In this document: positions 1,158 through 23,646 of the stretch, piece by piece
How the letters are laid out: each line of letters begins with the position of its first letter
Numbering within the stretch: position 1 is the stretch's first letter
IMG/VR virus record: IMGVR_UViG_3300025168_000553
Span: 1 to 26,679 of that record
From: a virus
DNA length: 26,679 nt
Strand: one strand, 5' to 3'
Position numbers and translations under genes: made by a program
The notes under the pieces: model-generated
The model's database searches: none
Told to the model about the DNA's origin: nothing
Seen by the model: the letters and a program-made list of their open reading frames with translations, nothing else

Positions 1158-1165
1158 TATAAATA
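1158..1165 (-). promoter_or_regulatory. TATTTATA box upstream of the helicase gene
   Basis: Reading on the minus strand, TATTTATA ends 16 nt before the helicase ATG and begins just after the stop codon of the upstream gene. It is followed by an A-rich leader (ATTAAAG). The same 8-mer occurs at six other sites listed here, mostly 13-24 nt before start codons. Function as a promoter -10 element is inferred from position and recurrence. No TTGACA-like -35 is visible 17 nt upstream. Confidence 0.45.
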
Positions 1166-6052: not shown

Positions 6053-6083
6053 TATAAATATATTAAAATGTAATAATAGTCAA
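6053..6083 (-). promoter_or_regulatory. Promoter with TTGACT and TATTTATA boxes
   Basis: Minus strand: TTGACT (6083-6078), 17 nt, then TATTTATA (6060-6053), 24 nt before the ATG of the 79-aa gene. This is the only TATTTATA site with a recognisable -35 at standard spacing. That supports the idea that the 8-mer acts as a -10-type element. The boxes lie in the 62-nt gap between the hub gene and the 79-aa gene. Confidence 0.55.
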
Positions 6084-6090
6084 CCTATTA

Positions 6091-9000
6091 CTATAAACCG
6101 TAAAAAAACGGTAAAAAATTAGCTGGGTCTAAAATATGTTCTACAACTATTTTCTTAACTTCACCCTCTATTTCCTTTTCAACAACAACGCCCCTTCTTA
6201 TTTCAAAGTGTAAATGTATACCTGACGAAGGACCACTATTACCTAGGATACCAATTTCTACAGCGTTAGATGCCGCACCAAATCTTTGTTGGTCTGTTAT
6301 GTTGTCGCCAACCTTAGCTTTAATACCATCCCTTAAAAAGGCATGTATTGTTTTGTAGTAAACTGTACCCCCATCATCTGGAAGTTCTTGGTATTCTATG
6401 CTTAGCCCACCTTCGGGGTTGTCTATGTATTCTGCGTTAACCGCTAAATCGGTTATTTCTATAAAATTACCATATTTCCCACAACCATCTTCTTTATCCT
6501 GAGGTTTACATCCATTTTTTACTTTGGTTACAGTACCTTTTATAGCGGTATACACTTTAATACCCTGATTACTATTAGATTTATCAACCATATTACTTTT
6601 TACTATTAGGTCAACACCCAAATGTCTGTGTTCTTCTCCTAATATAGGTGGGGTTAAAGTATACTCTGGATTTATAACGTCTGTAAATACTATGTTGTCA
6701 TCCGTAATTTCTGGACTTTCTTTAGTTAAAAGTGATAAATATCCATTACTGGTTCCACTTAATTGTTCCTGTGCTGGTGTTGCATTTAGTCCATCGTAAA
6801 AAACATCATCTGTTGTAGGTACAGCTTCTTCAGCTTTCTCAAATAGGCTTTCATTAACTCTTTGTACTAAGTCGGTAACTTTTGGTAATTGTGGTATAGG
6901 AACTCTAATGCCATCAAAAGAAGTTTCTATATTGTTTGGTGTTATATTATGTTCTACGTTTACAATTAAATACGGACCTTTAAACATAGGTAAGTACCTT
7001 AGTTGAAAATATTGTGTAGGTTGTATGGTAACATTACCCATACAGGTAATTTTAGCTGTATATGACCTGTTAGCGTAGATATTAAATAGGGATGTTGAAG
7101 CCATGGAGGTTGCTCCCCCACCACCAGAATCCGCCATTTCTTGTAGTATTTTAAAACTTTCTGACGTGTCTTGGTATTGTGATTGGTCTAGGGTTACTGA
7201 CTCAAAAATATTTTGGTTAGGTAAACCGAAATCTACTGTGAAACCCATAACTTTATTAGATAAGTTTTCATCGAAACATTTACCTTCCGATATTAATGGG
7301 TTTGGTGTTGCTTTATTAAGAGCAAAGGTATCGTTTGAAAATCCATTGTTAGTTGTTTTAATATCTAATTGTGTTGATGGTGGTCCAACATACTGACATA
7401 AAAAAGCCGGACTAGATTGTAAATAATCCACAGTATTAAAAGTACCAAACATGGCGTTTCCTTGGAGTTGTGCTGATTTTTCTGGTATATTAAAAAAGTT
7501 TATGTAAGCTGGTAGTGGTATAAAATTAAAATAGTTAGTAGCTAATATAGTACTAATATAACTAGCTACGCTTTGGGTTAGTGTTTTGGAGTTTGTTCCA
7601 GCAAATGGTGAATCTAACTGTATGATGTCCCATATACTAACTATCGCATCATTACCTATATCTCTATTAGCCCTATCAAAAAATAAGAATTTTTCAAATA
7701 GTGTCTCATTACTAGTAAAATCAATTCCAGAAACCCACCTGTCATTTATAACTTTAAATTGGTTGTACAATTCTAACTTTAAATTATCACCTTCTATTTT
7801 TGTTCTATCGTCACTTTTTTTACTTTTATTTTTTTCATCATCAACCGCATCTTGTGATGTTATAATTTTTTTTAGATTTTTTGTTAAATTATCGATATAG
7901 TCACCCATATTTTCTTCTTGGGAAGATAGGTCATTTAAAAATATATTTAAAAATTGTTTTGCACTAATAGGTCCGTTTACGGCACAATAAGTTCCATAAA
8001 GTTTAATGAATGGTGCAAATGATTCTATGTTGGCACTGTTAAATTCAATACCTGGTCCTGGTAAATTTATTGTTTGGAAAAACGAATAGTATGGATTTGT
8101 TATGTCATTCACCTGTAATAATCCTGGTATGGCGTAATCAATCCCGTCCATACCACCAATTACGTGATGTCTCATATCCACTAAAACCTGTGGGTTACCA
8201 ACAAACGTATTACCAGCACTTGGAATTGTAACCGTACTAGACGAGTAAAATCCAAACGTTTGATTTATTTGATTTTTATCAAAGGTTTGTAAAATATTTA
8301 ATCTTTGTAGTAGGGTTGTGGTTTGACTTTCAAAATCTAAATTTGTTGTTGATTTGTGTGCGTATTCTATATCTAAATTTAAAAAATTCATTATTTTTTC
8401 GTTAAACTTAAGTAGTTGTGCATCTGCCAGAGCTTCAGATAATTTACCCTCTGAACTGGTGGTATTGGAGACCCTGTCTACGTATGTCTTTTCAACGACT
8501 ATAGTGTCTTTTAATATTGTTTTAAAACTACCCCCAATATCCACACTACCTACAGGTGAAGAAAACTCTAAAAACATACCCTCAAAGGTATCTAGTTCTT
8601 GTTTAGTAAAAGTAGCTAATAAGTAATTTATAGAAGCTGAATCAATATTTTGGTTAAATGACCAGGATTCTTGTTCTTCATTAAAAGCGTCTATTTTTTT
8701 AATGTGTTGTGATGGTGATTTTCTATACCCTAAATTATTAGTGAAAAAACCGTAATTAGAAAGTCCCCATAGAGTCCTTACAGCTCCATTATGTAAATTA
8801 TTATTACCAAATAAGTTTTGGTAGTATTTTGCTGTTGTGTCTCTCAACCCACCAGAAGAAGGGTATAAAATATAGTAACTAGATGGTGCTGCGTTATTAA
8901 AGTCCACACCATAGTTTGGGTTGGTTACATTTGTTCCTTTTAAGTAGACATCGTAGAACTTAATTTGTGTACCAGCATTATCAGTTAATGATATTTCACT

Positions 9001-12000
9001 ATTATTTTCTATGTCTAAGTTTACACCAATAATATTGGATTCAAACATAGGGTTAGGTATCCCACCTATGTATTGTAATATGTTTGAGTCTGTGGCTATA
9101 TAGTGAAACGCGTCTACTACTTTAGCATAAAGACCTACCGACATAGAGTTGTTAACACCGTCTTGTGATATAAACTGGTATGGTTGTCCATCACTTGTAT
9201 CTGTTACCTGGTAGTTATAGTTTAAGTTTTGGGTTACGGGTTCATATACATATCCTGGGCCAGTAGCACTTGGTATACCACCAATAGTACCCAAATCATT
9301 CCAAACACTAGCTAAAGGGTCTCCAAGAATTAAATTTTCGTTATTTGATGATGCAGTCTTATATCTCCACCAAACAGACCCCATTTTTAATAAGAAAGCT
9401 ACGGGTACTTTATGTAAAGCAGGCATTTGGTTAAATACTTCAGATATATAGTCTCCCCTTGTGGAGTCATTTATAGAACTATTTTTTACTATAGTTAATT
9501 CTCTTAGTGTTGGTATCGGTAAGGAATTAAGAAATAGGTACGCGGCATTAGTATATGGGTTAGTGGTACCAGCTCTTTCATTTTCTACTCCTTGTATAAC
9601 CGCGTTTACAAAGTATGGTGTGTTTAACATGGAGGTTACTTCTCTTTGTATCGTAGCGTCAAATATATTAGTGTCAAATGTTGCACTACTTAATGGTGGT
9701 AGATTAGTGTTTCCTAAATTATAATGTAGTTCTCCTTCTGTTAAAAATAATTCTTTTGGTTGTAGGGTTTCTAGGTATTCTTGAAAAAGTTCCATACTAC
9801 TGAATACATCTACATTACCTTTAGATTTTCTCATTATTGCTTTTACGACATCTGTTTCATCCATGAAACAATACTTTGTAGAAGTAAAATACTTAGTGTT
9901 GAACTTATCCGTTAGAACATTACTATTATTTGTATCATATATTAAACTATTGTGTATATCATAAAAATTCCAATTTGGTCTAACCATACCTCCCGCTATA
10001 CCCATTTTTCTAGTTGCGTTCATCCTTAGTGGCTCCAAATCAAAGTTATTGGGTGTCTTTTTAAGTCTTATAGCTTCTTCACACAAAGTAAATTGTTGCG
10101 GTATAACTGAATATGGTAGTGGGGAATTTATTAACTCGTAACTAGATGTTATTAAGAATGGTGTTACGAGACCAAAGGTCCTATAGACCAAGTATTTTTC
10201 TGGGGATTCTTTTTCTAAAATATCTTGTATGGTACCAACATCTAAATCAGAATTTTTAAAATACTCTTTTAGTTTTTTATAGTCTTTTATCTGTTGGTAT
10301 AGGTTATTTGCGTCATACTCTGCTAGTTCGTTAATCGCTGGTGAAATTTCTTTTGTGTTAGAGTATCTAGTACTTAAACTACCATATAGTATGTTTTGTT
10401 GTGCCCTATCTAATATTTGAAATAATAAATCTGTTATTTCTAATATTCTGTAAGGTGTATTAGTTGGGGGCCAATCTTTTAAACTTATCGGTGTAAAATC
10501 TTTTAGTACTCCCACATTATTTGTTGGGAAATTAAAATCTGTAAACTTATATGCGGCACTCTTAGTGTATTCTTCCACAAATTCTACCTCAGGCCAAACT
10601 TCTTCGTTATCACCTTCAGTTATGTCCACCACATCATCAGCTCCAATATATGTTAATATAGATGATGTTACACATTCATTTTCTTCCTGGACGGTATAGT
10701 ATTGTGGCCATGGATATACTGTATCGGCATTTTCACTGTCGTTGGATACTTTTGCTACACTTAGTCGTTTGTGGTCATTTCTTTTTGCAAATGCTTTAGT
10801 GTGAACCTCATCTAATAATCTCAAAAAAGTATCCGCACCGGCAATTATAACAGCAAAAACATTTCTGATAGTTGGTTTGAATCCTAGTTCGGATTCTAAT
10901 CTACTATTTAGTTTTGCGGTAATCTTATCCGACATTTTTTTAGATTGTTTTTGGAATTGTTGTTCGGTTTTTTTCCATTGGCCATCAAAGCTTCTAGGGT
11001 GTACATCAAATACCAACCAAGGTGCTAATGACGAACCAAATTCCTCTTCTTTTTTTCTAATAGTTTCACCACCATCTATTAATGAAATGTCACTACCCAC
11101 CACCGAATGATTATAGATATTATAATCCATGGAAGCTAAAATAGTTGGTACTGGGTAATCCCCAGAAATATTGTTAAAGGTTGGGTTATTTTGTAATTGA
11201 AATGCGTATTTATTTGATAATTGTTTTAAACTTTCTTTAGCGTCTTTAACTATCAATTCTTTATTTTGTCTAGCAGCTTCTAAATCAGAATTATCTATGG
11301 TTGTCACCCCTTTTAATGGATAAGCCAAAATAGTTCTAGTTCTACCAGTACTACCATCTAAACTTGCTGTTTTAACATTAACTTTACAAGCAAAATCTTT
11401 AGCCAAATTATTTTCCATCCAACCCTTCTTACCACTAACAGATTCTTTATATTTTTTTAAAACATTTTTATAATCTAACCTATCGGAAGTTGCACTTAGG
11501 TCCGCTTGACCGAATAATTTTGCTAGGTCTCTATCTAAATTTTTTACTTTTTCTATTAATTCTACAAGAGTATATTCTGGAAAACTTTTATCTATTAGAT
11601 TCTTTTTTTTATATATGTCATATACTTCAGTCATCACCTCCCTGCCTTTGGTGGATGTAATTTTACTTCCCGTACTTCTATTAGGGTACATATAAGGAGC
11701 TGTTATAGCTTCATGCATATTAATATCCCTTAATAAGGCTATATGATTACCTTTAAAGTCACAAGATACGATGTAATCACCACTACTGGGGTCAAACCTA
11801 GATACAAATTTTTGTAATGTTAATTGGTATCTAACCGCTTTACCATAGTAACCCTTAAGTGTTAAAAAAAATGTTGGGTATGGTAAGTGAAAAAATGCTG
11901 TATATGGGGTATTTCCTCTAGCTTGTTCAAATAATGTTTTACCACGAATGTCTGTAAAATTTATACTTACCTGTGGTATGTAGGAAGAATTAATTTTAAC

Positions 12001-12381
12001 ACTTATAGATGTTATCCCAAATCCTTGAAAATCGTTACCTCCTTTTGATTTTGGTGAGTTTCCGGTGGTGAATCCTGGTTCGGTAAAAGCGTCTGTCCAA
12101 TCACTATCAAATTTAGACTTACCTTCTGGTTTTAAAAAATTAAGTTCCCCGTCTGCAATATCTATATTTATCTGGTCACCACTACCACCCCCAGCTATTA
12201 TTTTACTTCTTGGTGTTATTTTTGCTGTTAAATTTGCATACATAACCAAATCTTCCGGATTGACCAGTCTATCTTGGACTTTACCGTTAATAACAACTTT
12301 GTTTGGGTCTATTACAACTACGTTATTACCCACAGCATTTGTTAGTATGTCACCAGAATTTTTTAAAATCTTATCTGCCAT
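6091..12381 (-). CDS. Giant baseplate hub-like protein with C-terminal M23 endopeptidase
   Basis: 2096-aa virion protein, probably the central baseplate hub/tail-tip enzyme that cuts peptidoglycan during entry. Residues 90-240 (SVKINSSYIPQVSINFTDIR, then the GYYGKAVRYQLTLQKF part) and a segment before the enzyme (YFQLRYLPMFKGPYLIVNVEH, ending in RVPIPQLPKV) resemble gp27/late-control-D-type hub modules. The long middle is unassigned. From about residue 1915 there is a LytM/M23 metallopeptidase with its motifs intact: HLGVD (His1920, Asp1924), His2013 (TIHAFL) and HLHFE (His2056, His2058). These are the expected zinc ligands and catalytic histidines of D,D- or glycyl-endopeptidases. T4 divides such work between gp27 and gp5 (lysozyme plus beta-helix). 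No triple beta-helix repeat is visible here. It overlaps the gp53-like gene by 11 nt. Confidence 0.85.
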   Translation of the reverse strand: MADKILKNSGDILTNAVGNNVVVIDPNKVVINGKVQDRLVNPEDLVMYANLTAKITPRSKIIAGGGSGDQINIDIADGELNFLKPEGKSKFDSDWTDAFTEPGFTTGNSPKSKGGNDFQGFGITSISVKINSSYIPQVSINFTDIRGKTLFEQARGNTPYTAFFHLPYPTFFLTLKGYYGKAVRYQLTLQKFVSRFDPSSGDYIVSCDFKGNHIALLRDINMHEAITAPYMYPNRSTGSKITSTKGREVMTEVYDIYKKKNLIDKSFPEYTLVELIEKVKNLDRDLAKLFGQADLSATSDRLDYKNVLKKYKESVSGKKGWMENNLAKDFACKVNVKTASLDGSTGRTRTILAYPLKGVTTIDNSDLEAARQNKELIVKDAKESLKQLSNKYAFQLQNNPTFNNISGDYPVPTILASMDYNIYNHSVVGSDISLIDGGETIRKKEEEFGSSLAPWLVFDVHPRSFDGQWKKTEQQFQKQSKKMSDKITAKLNSRLESELGFKPTIRNVFAVIIAGADTFLRLLDEVHTKAFAKRNDHKRLSVAKVSNDSENADTVYPWPQYYTVQEENECVTSSILTYIGADDVVDITEGDNEEVWPEVEFVEEYTKSAAYKFTDFNFPTNNVGVLKDFTPISLKDWPPTNTPYRILEITDLLFQILDRAQQNILYGSLSTRYSNTKEISPAINELAEYDANNLYQQIKDYKKLKEYFKNSDLDVGTIQDILEKESPEKYLVYRTFGLVTPFLITSSYELINSPLPYSVIPQQFTLCEEAIRLKKTPNNFDLEPLRMNATRKMGIAGGMVRPNWNFYDIHNSLIYDTNNSNVLTDKFNTKYFTSTKYCFMDETDVVKAIMRKSKGNVDVFSSMELFQEYLETLQPKELFLTEGELHYNLGNTNLPPLSSATFDTNIFDATIQREVTSMLNTPYFVNAVIQGVENERAGTTNPYTNAAYLFLNSLPIPTLRELTIVKNSSINDSTRGDYISEVFNQMPALHKVPVAFLLKMGSVWWRYKTASSNNENLILGDPLASVWNDLGTIGGIPSATGPGYVYEPVTQNLNYNYQVTDTSDGQPYQFISQDGVNNSMSVGLYAKVVDAFHYIATDSNILQYIGGIPNPMFESNIIGVNLDIENNSEISLTDNAGTQIKFYDVYLKGTNVTNPNYGVDFNNAAPSSYYILYPSSGGLRDTTAKYYQNLFGNNNLHNGAVRTLWGLSNYGFFTNNLGYRKSPSQHIKKIDAFNEEQESWSFNQNIDSASINYLLATFTKQELDTFEGMFLEFSSPVGSVDIGGSFKTILKDTIVVEKTYVDRVSNTTSSEGKLSEALADAQLLKFNEKIMNFLNLDIEYAHKSTTNLDFESQTTTLLQRLNILQTFDKNQINQTFGFYSSSTVTIPSAGNTFVGNPQVLVDMRHHVIGGMDGIDYAIPGLLQVNDITNPYYSFFQTINLPGPGIEFNSANIESFAPFIKLYGTYCAVNGPISAKQFLNIFLNDLSSQEENMGDYIDNLTKNLKKIITSQDAVDDEKNKSKKSDDRTKIEGDNLKLELYNQFKVINDRWVSGIDFTSNETLFEKFLFFDRANRDIGNDAIVSIWDIIQLDSPFAGTNSKTLTQSVASYISTILATNYFNFIPLPAYINFFNIPEKSAQLQGNAMFGTFNTVDYLQSSPAFLCQYVGPPSTQLDIKTTNNGFSNDTFALNKATPNPLISEGKCFDENLSNKVMGFTVDFGLPNQNIFESVTLDQSQYQDTSESFKILQEMADSGGGGATSMASTSLFNIYANRSYTAKITCMGNVTIQPTQYFQLRYLPMFKGPYLIVNVEHNITPNNIETSFDGIRVPIPQLPKVTDLVQRVNESLFEKAEEAVPTTDDVFYDGLNATPAQEQLSGTSNGYLSLLTKESPEITDDNIVFTDVINPEYTLTPPILGEEHRHLGVDLIVKSNMVDKSNSNQGIKVYTAIKGTVTKVKNGCKPQDKEDGCGKYGNFIEITDLAVNAEYIDNPEGGLSIEYQELPDDGGTVYYKTIHAFLRDGIKAKVGDNITDQQRFGAASNAVEIGILGNSGPSSGIHLHFEIRRGVVVEKEIEGEVKKIVVEHILDPANFLPFFYGL

Positions 12382-16803: not shown

Positions 16804-16811
16804 TATAAATA
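16804..16811 (-). promoter_or_regulatory. TATTTATA box upstream of the 1000-aa baseplate gene
   Basis: Sense-direction TATTTATA followed by ATAAAAG, 14 nt before the ATG at 16789, in the gap after the tape measure gene. No -35-like hexamer is visible at 17 nt. Belongs to the recurrent motif set described in the findings. Confidence 0.5.
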
Positions 16812-18971: not shown

Positions 18972-18979
18972 TATAAATA
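18972..18979 (-). promoter_or_regulatory. TATTTATA box upstream of the tape measure gene
   Basis: Sense-direction TATTTATA followed by GATAAAA, ending 14 nt before the tape measure ATG at 18957. It starts 1 nt after the stop codon of the chaperone extension ORF. No -35 box seen. Confidence 0.5.
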
Positions 18980-20653: not shown

Positions 20654-20661
20654 TATAAATA
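20654..20661 (-). promoter_or_regulatory. TATTTATA box upstream of the tail tube gene
   Basis: Sense-direction ATATTTATAGGTATA, ending 36 nt before the tube ATG, within the 66-nt gap after the HAD gene. The flanking string ATATTTATAGGTATA is shared with the site at 6053-6060. No -35 hexamer at 17 nt. Confidence 0.5.
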
Positions 20662-20683: not shown

Positions 20684-21538
20684 TTAATTTGCTTGTTTTA
20701 GTACTATTTTATTCATCCCACCTTCAGATGTGTCATAAACAACAAAATCTACATCTGGAAATTCTACTTGTAAAACCTCTTTAATAAAAGGTACTATAGC
20801 GTTTATATTACCTAAATCGTCATCACTAAAACCCACAGATAGTTTTTCTGTACCACTATATACCATTTCTGAAACTTTTTTAACTATATTAGACACATAG
20901 TCTCTTAAAGCTATTTTTTTGTTTTCTTCAGGATTTGCGGCAGAACCACCCTCCAAACCAAACTTATCAGTAAATATTTTAGATGTTACTGGGTGATACT
21001 CGTGTGAGTCTAAATATGTTTTTAATATTTTTTCCGGTGTTTCCCCGTCTAATTCTGGGTTAGTTTGTTGTATATTATCAATCATCCTACCTAATTCTTC
21101 TTCATTAAAAGTATTGGATATAACTAGGTCCATACCCTTTCTTAGGGCTGTTGGGTTGTGTCCTCTTGCTGTGATTATGGATATTGGATTTGCGTAGATT
21201 AGAGCCTCTTTAAATTTATCGAAAGAGGGAGCGAAAGAATTGGTTTCTAGTGCTTTCCCTAAATCAGATAAAAATGACTCGTCGTTAATAAAGTTATCAA
21301 AAGCTCCTTCTCCTAATTTATAGTTTTTATTGTCCCTGACCATAGCAAACTCTTCGGTACCAACCTCTGTGGGTGCCCAACCATCATCAGACCTCTTTAA
21401 CATCTTTATTGTTGTTGGCATTTTAAGGATGTTATCATCCCAATCAAAACTATAAGCTCGTATATAGTTATTCTGTTCATCCAAGATAACCCCAATCATT
21501 TTTAATTGTTTTTCCGTTATTAATATTTGTTGTGACAT
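20684..21538 (-). CDS. HAD-superfamily phosphohydrolase-like protein with N-terminal tag
   Basis: 284 aa. HAD motif I is AYSFDWDDNIL, with the nucleophile candidate Asp32 and acid/base Asp34. Motif II is SIITARG (Thr123). A lysine for motif III may be Lys207/Lys208, and motif IV is VGFSDDDLGNI (Asp239-Asp241). All the residues for Mg-dependent phosphoryl transfer seem present, so it is likely active, but the substrate is not evident. The N-terminus carries ILITEKQLKMIGVIL, a short amphipathic helix also found in the two small neighbours at 22643 and 23041. It lies between the plus-strand island and the tube gene. The ATG at 21538 is only 4 nt from a TATTTATA box. If that box is a promoter, the mRNA would be leaderless or translation would begin at Met14. 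Confidence 0.8.
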   Translation of the reverse strand: MSQQILITEKQLKMIGVILDEQNNYIRAYSFDWDDNILKMPTTIKMLKRSDDGWAPTEVGTEEFAMVRDNKNYKLGEGAFDNFINDESFLSDLGKALETNSFAPSFDKFKEALIYANPISIITARGHNPTALRKGMDLVISNTFNEEELGRMIDNIQQTNPELDGETPEKILKTYLDSHEYHPVTSKIFTDKFGLEGGSAANPEENKKIALRDYVSNIVKKVSEMVYSGTEKLSVGFSDDDLGNINAIVPFIKEVLQVEFPDVDFVVYDTSEGGMNKIVLKQAN

Positions 21539-21542
21539 ATAA

Positions 21543-21550
21543 TATAAATA
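21543..21550 (-). promoter_or_regulatory. TATTTATA box in the divergent intergenic region
   Basis: Exact match to the recurrent 8-mer, 4 nt before the ATG of the HAD gene on the minus strand. The spacing is shorter than at the other sites. Seen from the plus strand it reads TATAAATA, 44 nt before the lipoprotein gene. Least certain member of the set. Confidence 0.35.
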
Positions 21551-21558
21551 CCAATTAA

Positions 21559-21590
21559 TTTGGTTTAATCGTTTTTATTACTTATCTTTG
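21559..21590 (+). promoter_or_regulatory. Bacteroidota-type promoter for the plus-strand island
   Basis: TTTG (21559-21562), 20 nt, TATCTTTG (21583-21590). This matches the known Bacteroidota housekeeping promoter, -33 TTTG and -7 TAnnTTTG, at the usual spacing. The -7 box ends only 4 nt before the lipoprotein ATG at 21595, so the transcript may be leaderless or nearly so. It is the only clear match to the host consensus that I noticed in the window. Confidence 0.75.
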
Positions 21591-21594
21591 TAGT

Positions 21595-22167
21595 ATGAAA
21601 AATATTATAAAACTATTATGTGTCCTAGTGTTGGTGTCTTGTGAAAAAGAACCCTTCTATATTCCTTGTAATAACTCCCAACCAACAACACAAAATCCAT
21701 CACAACCAAACAACGAAGAATTTATAGATGGCTGTTGGTTATTAAAGGGTGGTAAGATGTATATGGAAAACCTGGAGACTTTAGAAGTTACTGAATTACC
21801 ACACTTTATGGTTAATGACACAAGTAGTTTACGTTATGGTAATCCTATGTATGAATTTGAGGTTGTCATTAGAAACTCCACGTCTTGGTGTTTTAATCTA
21901 CCCCCAAACATCCCAGGTATGGGTGATTTTGTACTAAATGGGGACAGTCTAACACCTTATGGGTTATCTGTTACGGGAAGTAATATTACAGTAACTGAAC
22001 CTTTAGTGGGTGGTTACCTATTACTTGGTGGTTCTGGTAGACCAATACTATATGAGGTTGTTGATTTTGGGGAGAATATCATTATGGTATATGTCCAAGA
22101 AAGTTACGAAAATATAAACGGATATAACCACAAATACTACTCTAAACTTAAATTTAAAAAATACTAA
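21595..22167 (+). CDS. Secreted lipoprotein of unknown function, 190 aa
   Basis: Exported lipoprotein: MKNIIKLLCVLVLVSC is a type II signal sequence with a lipobox ending LVSC, so Cys16 would be lipidated. The residues after it (EKEPF) are charged and may act as a surface-export signal of the kind described in flavobacteria (inferred). A Gln/Asn/Pro/Thr-rich linker (about 22-40) precedes a beta-rich domain starting DGCWLLKGGKMY and ending YYSKLKFKKY, which has a faint lipocalin-like rhythm. I cannot name a family. It is on the opposite strand to all phage genes, with a host-type promoter, and is coupled to the next gene by a 1-nt gap. Infection-related roles such as receptor masking against superinfecting phage (compare T5 Llp) are a hypothesis. 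Confidence 0.85.
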   Translation: MKNIIKLLCVLVLVSCEKEPFYIPCNNSQPTTQNPSQPNNEEFIDGCWLLKGGKMYMENLETLEVTELPHFMVNDTSSLRYGNPMYEFEVVIRNSTSWCFNLPPNIPGMGDFVLNGDSLTPYGLSVTGSNITVTEPLVGGYLLLGGSGRPILYEVVDFGENIIMVYVQESYENINGYNHKYYSKLKFKKY

Positions 22168-22168
22168 A

Positions 22169-22579
22169 ATGAAAAAAATATATTCCTTACTACTGTTCTT
22201 TTTACCTATTATAGTAAACTCTCAAACTATGCAACTATATCAAAAAAGTTTTGTGATTGAGACCAAAAAACCTATGGAATCTTTAGATTACCAACAACCA
22301 ACCCTTAGTTATTTGTACACACTTAGTGTTGATACTGTTAATGGTGAAGTTTTTATACATAGAAATGATTTAACTAGTAACTGTGTTGAGGACGTGTCTT
22401 TTAAAATAACTGGTGAGTCCACTGATTATTTTAATACAACGTATACTCTTTATGATAAATCACAACAAAAAGACGGTTTTCTTGTCATATCTGGTGGTGA
22501 TTTAGTTATATTTGGTTTTTTTAACGACACAGCCAAAAAATATGTTGGGTTTATGGGGTATGTTAAAAATATTCTATAA
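22169..22579 (+). CDS. Small secreted protein with signal peptide, 136 aa
   Basis: MKKIYSLLLFFLPIIVNSQ is a Sec signal peptide. Predicted cleavage after Ser18 leaves an N-terminal Gln, a common pattern in Bacteroidota. The mature protein (about 118 aa) is beta-rich (LSYLYTLSVDTVNGEVFIHR, FLVISGGDLVIFGFF) with one Cys; no known domain recognised. It begins 1 nt after the lipoprotein stop (TAA A ATG), so the two are probably co-translated and may act together at the envelope or periplasm. A bidirectional terminator follows. The plus strand, promoter type and secretion signals set this pair apart from its neighbours and suggest acquisition from a host or another mobile element. Function unknown. 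Confidence 0.82.
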   Translation: MKKIYSLLLFFLPIIVNSQTMQLYQKSFVIETKKPMESLDYQQPTLSYLYTLSVDTVNGEVFIHRNDLTSNCVEDVSFKITGESTDYFNTTYTLYDKSQQKDGFLVISGGDLVIFGFFNDTAKKYVGFMGYVKNIL

Positions 22580-22598
22580 CTTTATGTTACTAAATAGA

Positions 22599-22620
22599 AA
22601 AAGGTCCATAAGGACCTTTT
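22599..22620. terminator. Bidirectional intrinsic terminator between convergent genes
   Basis: 9-bp perfect stem AAAAGGTCC / GGACCTTTT with a 4-nt loop (ATAA). T tract on the plus side TTTT, on the minus side TTTTT. It is 20 nt after the plus-strand island and 23 nt after the stop of the minus-strand 131-aa gene, so it can end both. Confidence 0.87.
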
Positions 22621-22642: not shown

Positions 22643-23038
22643 TTATTTTTTTCTTTGTTTAATAACTTTTTCTATAATATTAATAAGTTGACTTTCCGTT
22701 AATTTTAAACTTTTCTTTTTAGATTCGCCCATTCTTTGTTTTCTAATGTCTGAATCCACACCAACAACTCTAGATTTTCTACCATCAAACTCATCTCTAT
22801 CTTCGTGGTCCATTTTTTTGTAACCTTTATGACCTTCTTTGGTTTCCATTTCATCCATTTCCATTTCATCCATGTCATCCTCCTCCTCAACATCATCCTT
22901 TTCAAGGAGTTCTTTATATTTGGCGGAAGGTGTACCCATTAATGGAAATATTTGACCTACGCCATTAGATAAATTTTCTTTAACTAATTTTTCTATTAAA
23001 TCTACTAACTCAGATTCTTTTAATGTAATTTTTTTCAT
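22643..23038 (-). CDS. Charged protein with helical tags at both ends, 131 aa
   Basis: Unknown function. Two related amphipathic helices bracket the protein: ITLKESELVDLIEKLVKE at residues 4-21 and LKLTESQLINIIEKVIKQ near the C-terminus. Between them is a disordered acidic part (VEEEDDMDEMEMDEMETKE, about residues 50-68) and a mixed charged His/Lys/Asp part. No signal or membrane segment. It starts 2 nt after the 196-aa gene ends, so they share a transcript. The sequence looks like a scaffold or prohead-core-type protein (T4 core proteins are also small and highly charged), and the location below the sheath gene fits a virion-assembly role. That is inference from composition and place. Confidence 0.75.
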   Translation of the reverse strand: MKKITLKESELVDLIEKLVKENLSNGVGQIFPLMGTPSAKYKELLEKDDVEEEDDMDEMEMDEMETKEGHKGYKKMDHEDRDEFDGRKSRVVGVDSDIRKQRMGESKKKSLKLTESQLINIIEKVIKQRKK

Positions 23039-23040
23039 TT

Positions 23041-23625
23041 TTATATTTTTGAAATTGGTTTTATTATTTGTTTCATCTTTGTGATGTCTTCTCGTATTAG
23101 TCTTTCTTTTTCTTCTTTTGATTCTTCTATGTTATTTGTATCGTGTATATGGTCATAGTGCATATCATCTTCTAAGTCATCTATATGGTCTTCACTACCA
23201 CCATCATGTTTTAAATCATAAAGTTCTTTATCGTCGTGACCTTCATCTTTACCATAGTTCATAGCTTCATCATGACCAGAATCTTCTTTAACCTCTTTAG
23301 CCGCTTTTTTCATAGACTCTTTTTTATCCCCATCACCATCAAGGTCTAGAAAATCAGGTTTTGCCCCTTCGTCCATTTCTTTTTTATCTTTAGCCGCTTT
23401 TTTCATGGATTCTTTTTTATCACCATCACCATCAAGGTCTAAAAAATCTGGTTTAGCATCTTCTTCTAAATTTATTTCTTGCCACTGTTCTTGGATTGTG
23501 CCTAAAACTCTATCTAACTGTTCTTCACTAATAATAATATTTTGTTTTTTACCATCAGTAAAAGTTTTTTCACTATTAGATTTTTTGTTTAGGGTTTTCA
23601 CCAACATTTTTTTATTAAATTTCAT
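23041..23625 (-). CDS. Acidic repeat protein with two EF-hand/dockerin-like DLDGDGD loops
   Basis: About 194 aa from the ATG at 23625; an in-frame TTG two codons upstream is less likely. An N-terminal basic stretch (KFNKKMLVKTLNKK) is followed by the tag IIISEEQLDRVLGTI. Then come two copies of a 31-residue unit, AKPDFLDLDGDGDKKESMKK plus AAK and linker. The loop D-x-D-x-D-G fits the first half of an EF-hand or dockerin calcium loop, but position 12 is Met rather than Glu. The C-terminal half is rich in His and Asp (DEGHDDKELYDLKHDGG, DDMHYDHIHD), which could bind metal. KPDFLDLDGDGDKKE-type strings are familiar to me from predicted proteins of marine phages (from memory, unchecked). Probably an assembly or prohead-core-type protein. 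A TATTTATA box lies 13 nt upstream. Confidence 0.8.
   Translation of the reverse strand: MKFNKKMLVKTLNKKSNSEKTFTDGKKQNIIISEEQLDRVLGTIQEQWQEINLEEDAKPDFLDLDGDGDKKESMKKAAKDKKEMDEGAKPDFLDLDGDGDKKESMKKAAKEVKEDSGHDEAMNYGKDEGHDDKELYDLKHDGGSEDHIDDLEDDMHYDHIHDTNNIEESKEEKERLIREDITKMKQIIKPISKI
23296..23458. repeat. 93-nt period tandem repeat, two copies, in the acidic repeat gene
   Basis: Two copies of an approximately 70-nt highly similar block, starting at tttagccgcttttttca (23296 and 23389). The offset is 93 nt (31 codons). The copies differ at a few mostly third-codon positions while the core DLDGDGDKKESMKKAAK is unchanged, which points to an in-frame duplication kept under protein-level selection. 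Confidence 0.88.
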
Positions 23626-23638
23626 AATCAAGTTTTGT

Positions 23639-23646
23639 TATAAATA
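23639..23646 (-). promoter_or_regulatory. TATTTATA box upstream of the acidic repeat gene
   Basis: Sense-direction TATTTATA followed by ACAAAAC, 13 nt before the ATG at 23625 and directly adjoining the sheath stop codon (23647-23649). No -35 hexamer at 17 nt. Confidence 0.5.

What the first reader, a model, noticed from the sequence alone, without database searches (positions are those of the whole stretch)
21595..22579. Plus-strand island of a lipoprotein and a secreted protein under a host-type promoter
Seen: it is the only confident plus-strand pair, with TTTG-N20-TATCTTTG directly upstream, 1-nt gene coupling, export signals on both proteins and a hairpin terminator. It interrupts a minus-strand virion gene cluster. 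Established: phages carry envelope proteins such as T5 Llp or T4 Imm/Sp that block superinfection. Inference: an autonomous cassette (moron-like) transcribed by unmodified host polymerase, perhaps for superinfection exclusion or alteration of the host surface. Neither protein matches a family I recognise, so this may be a new two-component exclusion or surface-modification module.
Basis: partly seen in the sequence, partly recalled or inferred. Interest (0 to 1): 0.7.

Follow-up and report, generated by a model that had tools for sequence, protein, structure and literature searches.

The report
Host-promoter envelope cassette in phage
A T4-like marine phage, probably of flavobacteria, carries between two tail genes a small opposite-strand gene set with its own host-type promoter; it makes proteins sent to the host's outer envelope, is swapped between related phages, and most likely shuts out competing phages, though that function is untested.

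Summary
Window 21595-22579 (+) encodes a lipoprotein (A, 190 aa) and a secreted protein (B, 136 aa), one base apart, behind TTTG-N20-TATCTTTG and before a hairpin terminator, inside a minus-strand tail cluster. In this window alone the promoter match is chance level. Related phages make it real: in 26 other contigs the same slot carries an opposite-strand unit, and wherever the first gene is readable TTTG-N19/20-TA(T/A)(C/A)TTTG-4 nt-ATG is kept, also at a second genomic site. By published flavobacterial start-site mapping, transcription would begin on the A of the ATG: a leaderless message. In 102 kb and 128 kb relatives it is the only such promoter near a gene start; other genes share a different motif, GTATTTATA. 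Contents vary: A-B, A-C, A-B-C, B-C or C alone, C being a 78-aa two-TM protein. A and flank trees conflict, so islands are swapped. A, B and C match no curated family. The best reading is a moron-like cassette, transcribed by unmodified host polymerase from infection's start, placing proteins in the outer membrane, periplasm and inner membrane. Superinfection exclusion, working like T5 Llp but unrelated in sequence, is the likeliest role (about 50%), and is inferred.

The parts
21559..21590 (+). Bacteroidota primary-sigma-type promoter TTTG-N20-TATCTTTG; predicted start of transcription at 21595, the A of the ATG
   Evidence: exact match; kept in all slot loci with a readable first gene and at a second genomic site in L035; the TAnnTTTG box lies at -12 to -5 in F. 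psychrophilum (PMC9723704)
21595..22167 (+). gene A: lipoprotein of 190 aa, lipobox LVSC with Cys16, invariant C-X-K-E after processing; new family
   Evidence: 13-sequence alignment A7; no curated family; purifying selection
22169..22579 (+). gene B: secreted, all-beta protein of 136 aa; divergent family, moderate model resembles a lipocalin-type barrel
22598..22620 (.). symmetrical hairpin terminator AAAAAGGTCC-ATAA-GGACCTTTT between the island and the convergent minus-strand gene
   Evidence: same stem in 20 of 23 loci examined
20684..21538 (-). left flank: HAD-type phosphatase-like gene (motif FDWDDN), start codon 56 nt from that of A; preceded by TATTTATA
   Evidence: family name recalled from the motif, no Pfam match
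22643..23038 (-). right flank: small acidic protein with LKESEL and LTESQL motifs at its two ends, convergent with the island
21543..21550 (-). TATTTATA, the motif found upstream of the phage's other genes, here serving the divergent HAD-like gene

Best explanation
The island is an autonomous accessory transcription unit (a moron-like cassette) held in a fixed slot between the sheath and tube genes of a group of T4-like phages, probably of flavobacteria. Host RNA polymerase with its primary sigma factor reads it from the moment DNA enters, as a leaderless message, independently of the phage programme that serves the virion genes. Its products go to the envelope: A is a lipoprotein of the outer membrane, B a soluble periplasmic barrel, and in most relatives C is a small inner-membrane protein. 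The most likely role is superinfection exclusion: A occupies or distorts an outer-membrane receptor, as T5 Llp does with FhuA, so that later phages cannot adsorb or inject, and B or C add a second barrier in the periplasm or inner membrane. Shown by sequence: the anatomy, conserved promoter and terminator, variable contents, swapping, and export signals. Inferred: early expression, outer-membrane or surface location, and the exclusion function.
For: Promoter kept with a 4-nt spacing to the ATG in all slot loci whose first gene is readable, whichever gene comes first (A, or B-type in L048, L056, L057), and with A at another genomic place in L035. In the 102 kb and 128 kb contigs it is the only TTTG-TAnnTTTG within 45 nt upstream of a gene, while TATTTATA precedes 12 and 14 genes against 0.6 and 0.7 expected. 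Start site from published mapping (PMC9723704). Terminator. Sheath and tube genes are adjacent in Flavobacterium phage immuto, so the slot is an insertion there or a loss in immuto. A tree and flank tree conflict with good support for L028 and L033. Export signals on A and B, two TM stretches in C; invariant C-X-K-E in A resembles part of the Bacteroidetes surface export signal C-X-K-(D/E)2 (PMC5080379). T5 Llp is likewise an early lipoprotein gene beside a tail gene (PMC9586334). Swappable modules and no host homologue found fit phage-phage competition.
Against: No sequence relation to any exclusion protein: the Cor profile touches one A only over its signal peptide at E 0.13, and C does not align with T4 Imm. 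A (about 175 mature residues) is much larger than Llp or Cor. No data on timing, location or phenotype. The second acidic residue of the surface export signal is mostly missing. Ligand binding by lipocalin-like barrels could serve other ends.
Confidence: 0.5

Rival explanations
1. Host physiology: the cassette alters the envelope for the benefit of the infection, for example by binding a small molecule, buffering envelope stress or steering nutrient uptake; exclusion is not its purpose.
For: B model resembles lipocalin-type ligand-binding barrels; C has a weak, sub-threshold similarity to DUF420; relative L057 adds a secreted CAP-domain protein.
Against: No enzyme or transporter in the cassette; model confidence is moderate; contents are swapped and partly dispensable, more typical of competition or defence genes.
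Confidence: 0.25
2. Constitutive function during a carrier or pseudolysogenic state: the host promoter lets the genes be expressed when the phage programme is silent, protecting or marking the carrier cell.
For: The promoter needs no phage factor and is the only one of its kind near a gene start in 102 and 128 kb of sequence; accessory loci of prophages are often highly expressed while other phage genes are silent (abstract of PMC7067206).
Against: No integrase or repressor was looked for, and no persistent state is known to me for these T4-like phages.
Confidence: 0.12
3. Lysis or lysis-timing cassette: C a holin or antiholin, A a spanin-like lipoprotein.
For: C is a small two-TM protein; A is a lipoprotein.
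Against: A has a large conserved domain; a host promoter acting from the start is the wrong timing for holins; C is missing in the window and A or B in others; no holin or spanin family match above noise.
Confidence: 0.08
4. Virion-associated proteins encoded on the opposite strand of the tail cluster.
For: They lie between tail sheath and tail tube genes.
Against: Cleavable export signals, a host promoter instead of the GTATTTATA motif, opposite strand, variable contents.
Confidence: 0.03

Closest known systems
Phage morons (accessory units with their own promoter and terminator inserted between conserved phage genes)
   Same: own host-type promoter, own terminator, opposite strand, inserted between virion genes, swapped between relatives
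   Different: usually described in prophages of lambdoid and related phages; here in T4-like phages, in a fixed slot with exchangeable contents, and with base composition like the flank (32% against 33% GC)
T5 Llp and the Cor lipoproteins (superinfection exclusion by blocking FhuA)
   Same: phage lipoprotein gene beside tail genes, expected to be expressed from the start of infection, sent to the outer membrane
   Different: no sequence similarity; A is about 175 residues mature against 61 residues in the Llp structure; comes with B or C; probable flavobacterial host and unknown receptor
T4 Imm and Sp (superinfection exclusion at the inner membrane and in the periplasm)
   Same: C is a 78-aa two-TM protein like Imm (83 aa, two TM); B is a small periplasmic protein like Sp
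   Different: C and Imm do not align; B is all-beta; in T4 the genes lie among replication genes, not in a tail slot
Streptococcal phage Ltp-type exclusion lipoproteins (PMC3952083, listed)
   Same: phage-encoded, surface-directed lipoprotein for exclusion
   Different: Gram-positive temperate phages; similarity was not specifically tested

Membership tests
phage moron | inserted between genes that are adjacent in relatives | tested here: met
   sheath and tube genes are neighbours in Flavobacterium phage immuto; only one cultured relative compared
phage moron | own promoter and own terminator | tested here: met
   promoter; terminator
phage moron | gained, lost or exchanged independently of the flanks | tested here: met
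   A-B, A-C, A-B-C, B-C, C versions; tree conflict
phage moron | base composition unlike the surrounding phage genes | tested here: not met
   GC 0.320 against 0.331 for the window; often but not always seen in morons, so the label used is 'moron-like'
phage moron | expressed independently of the lytic programme | not testable with these tools
   needs RNA-seq; the promoter type predicts it
T5 Llp / Cor exclusion lipoproteins | sequence or profile similarity | tested here: not met
   no PHROG match for the window's A except a spanin profile at E 0.2; Cor profile at E 0.13 in one homologue, signal peptide only
T5 Llp / Cor exclusion lipoproteins | signal peptide with lipobox, small phage lipoprotein | tested here: inconclusive
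   lipobox cysteine invariant in 13 A sequences, but A is two to three times larger
T5 Llp / Cor exclusion lipoproteins | binds an outer-membrane receptor and blocks adsorption | not testable with these tools
   experiment needed
T4 Imm | sequence or profile similarity of C to Imm | tested here: not met
   hhalign probability 0.2%; no PHROG match
T4 Imm | small inner-membrane protein with two membrane spans | tested here: met
   two hydrophobic stretches in C and in Imm; C is not encoded next to B in the window itself
lipocalin-like beta barrel (B) | eight-stranded antiparallel barrel | tested here: inconclusive
   model pLDDT 64, ten strands; best VIA-align Z 8.7, rmsd 2.9 A, 105 aligned to nitrophorin; Foldseek best E 5e-3
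Bacteroidetes surface-exported lipoprotein (A) | export signal C-X-K-(D/E)2-X after the lipid-bearing cysteine | tested here: inconclusive
   C-X-K-E invariant in 13 sequences, second acidic residue mostly missing (PMC5080379)

The most novel reading that the evidence does not exclude
A new, modular superinfection-exclusion locus of T4-like Bacteroidota phages: one invariant leaderless host promoter in a fixed tail-gene slot, into which outer-membrane lipoprotein (A), periplasmic barrel (B) and inner-membrane (C) modules are exchanged, giving each phage its own envelope barrier in up to three compartments.
Probability: 0.4. Interest if true: 0.72.

Novelty: new variant of a known kind. Interest (0 to 1): 0.52.

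Why it matters
How phages of Bacteroidota, a major group of marine and gut bacteria, exclude one another is poorly known. The locus gives three new envelope protein families and a ready test: a fixed slot with swappable genes under one host promoter, so exclusion specificity can be tested by exchanging modules in laboratory strains. It also offers a conserved leaderless phage message in a phylum where leaderless mRNAs are a small minority (5.5% of mapped mRNAs in F. psychrophilum), and a sequence rule (host-type promoter against GTATTTATA) that separates host-read genes from the rest in uncultured phages.

Tried and rejected
TATAAATA at 21543-21550 looked like a T4 late promoter for the island; rejected because its complement TATTTATA is the motif found upstream of the minus-strand genes. 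Profile search of solved structures with A and C: nothing. A and B as paralogues: hhalign aligns only the signal peptides. C and the 86-aa protein next to A in L005: no homology, only the same kind of protein. Host homologues of A: none found in two scans of genome contigs, a scan that reaches only relatives with the conserved short motifs; NCBIfam Riean_0653 gives weak, sub-threshold matches to 6 of 13 A proteins (best E 0.0036), not followed beyond the window and the control genomes. Annotated phage collection: no match to A or C. Viral structure library for B: no match below E 1e-3. Matches of B- and C-like proteins to unrelated Pfam or PADLOC models at E 0.001-1 were taken as noise.

Full report
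What is there. The window is a 26.7 kb fragment of an uncultured T4-like phage (an IMG/VR record) with tail sheath, tail tube, baseplate, helicase-like and recombinase-like genes, all on the minus strand (the last two named from their sequences, not tested). At 21595-22579 two genes stand on the plus strand: A, a lipoprotein of 190 aa, and B, a secreted protein of 136 aa, one base apart. TTTG-N20-TATCTTTG ends 4 nt before the ATG of A and a symmetrical hairpin closes the unit at 22598-22620.

Is it more than chance? The promoter pattern alone is not: 3 matches in the window against 1.84 expected. Conservation decides. In L003 and L004 the island lies in the same place (A 94% and 77%, B 80% and 52% identical). 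The 56-nt spacer differs at 3 sites between window and L004, while synonymous sites in A, B and the flanking gene differ at 62-70%. Scans with the flanking HAD-like gene, then with A and with C, gave 26 further contigs with the slot. In every one with a readable first gene, TTTG-N19/20-TATCTTTG (TATATTTG in L019 and L024) is followed after 4 nt by the ATG, whether the first gene is A or a B relative. L060, which has only C, keeps the promoter but its ATG has become ATA, followed about 90 nt later by C. L035, from another phage, has A with the same promoter and spacing at a different genomic place, again on the strand opposite to its neighbours.

Which polymerase? TTTG/TAnnTTTG is the primary-sigma promoter of Bacteroidota (PMC7366714); in Flavobacterium psychrophilum the TAnnTTTG box lies at -12 to -5 (PMC9723704). 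That puts the start of transcription on the A of the ATG at 21595. Leaderless mRNAs are 5.5% of those mapped in that species, so an invariant leaderless design is unusual. In two relatives of 102 kb and 128 kb the island's promoter is the only TTTG-TAnnTTTG within 45 nt upstream of a gene, and the strict TATCTTTG form occurs once in each. The other genes share a different motif, GTATTTATA, usually 13-16 nt before the start codon (12 and 14 genes, 0.6 and 0.7 expected). These contigs are not complete, so early regions may be missing. In the 362 kb phage of L005, which has A elsewhere, such promoters are common (28).

What varies. Slot versions seen: A-B (window, L003, L004); A-C (most); A-B-C with the A and B frames overlapping (L047); B-C (L019/L024, L048, L056, L057, the last with an added secreted CAP-domain protein, PF00188 E 8.5e-5); C alone (L060, L061); A with another secreted protein (L028). 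C is a 78-aa protein with two hydrophobic stretches. B relatives are divergent: window B matches L057 B at E 0.007 and L057 B matches L024 at E 7e-14. Trees of A and of the flanking gene conflict with good support: L028 joins the window group by A (98/96) and L033 joins the L010 group by A (98/96), yet both fall in another clade by the flank (97/98). So the island is exchanged while the flank stays.

What the proteins are. None has a curated match in Pfam, PHROGs, NCBIfam or PADLOC. A keeps C-X-K-E right after the lipid-bearing cysteine in all 13 sequences, part of the known surface export signal C-X-K-(D/E)2-X (PMC5080379); surface exposure is plausible, not shown. B's model (pLDDT 64) is all-beta and resembles lipocalin-type barrels (VIA-align Z 8.7, rmsd 2.9 A over 105 residues; Foldseek E 5e-3), near the level where a match may mean only a common arrangement. 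The model of A is unusable. No host homologue of A was found.

How it most likely works. Shown: an autonomous unit with host-type promoter and terminator, exported products, exchangeable contents. Inferred: host polymerase reads it on DNA entry; A sits in the outer membrane, B in the periplasm, C in the inner membrane; together or singly they keep out later phages. The closest working model is T5 Llp, an early phage lipoprotein encoded beside a tail gene that jams the receptor FhuA from the periplasmic side (PMC9586334). C recalls T4 Imm in size and two spans but does not align with it. Superinfection exclusion gets about 50%; other effects on host physiology 25%; a carrier-state function 12%; lysis 8%; virion parts 3%.

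Verdict. 'Two-component' is too narrow, and the function remains untested. New variant of a known kind (moron-like envelope cassette).

Noticed in passing
window 1158-1165, 6053-6060, 16804-16811, 18972-18979, 20654-20661, 21543-21550, 23639-23646 (minus strand): TATTTATA (longer form GTATTTATA) lies upstream of 7 minus-strand genes here and of 12 and 14 genes in two long relatives, usually 13-16 nt before the ATG: probably this phage group's own middle or late promoter element, differing from T4's TATAAATA.
   Followed up: partly
window 20684-21538, 22643-23038, 23041-23631; L005 4303-4740, 7891-8232; L023 536-1138: Many proteins begin or end with a motif like I/L-T/S/K-E-S/K/E-Q-L (LTESQL, ISEEQL, ITEKQL), others with NLNESEKNRIRxLHG. 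L/I-X-E is also the cleavage rule of T4 prohead protease, so these may be capsid-targeting tags of internal, injected proteins.
   Followed up: no
window 20684-21538: The HAD-like flanking protein (FDWDDN motif) matches no Pfam or PHROG family but has 30-36% identical relatives in uncultured huge phages of 634-735 kb.
   Followed up: no
L057 4388-4978: In one relative the slot carries an additional secreted CAP-superfamily protein (PF00188, E 8.5e-5) after C.
   Followed up: partly
L005 5001-5818 (362 kb contig): A distant A homologue (45-49% identical) is directly followed by an unrelated 86-aa two-TM protein, so the pairing of A with a small membrane protein recurs; this phage has 28 promoters of the form TTTG-N-TATCTTTG, many with an extended TTTGGTAGATT start.
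   Followed up: partly
L060 and L061, 3896-3995: The slot promoter is kept where the first gene is gone and its ATG is ATA; C follows about 90 nt downstream, a likely remnant of a lost first gene (L060 read; L061 near-identical).
   Followed up: partly
window 6091-12381: A single ORF of 2096 aa ends in an M23-type peptidase-like region (HRHLGVDL...GIHLHFEIR, recalled motif), likely a tail lysin fused to a very large baseplate protein.
   Followed up: no
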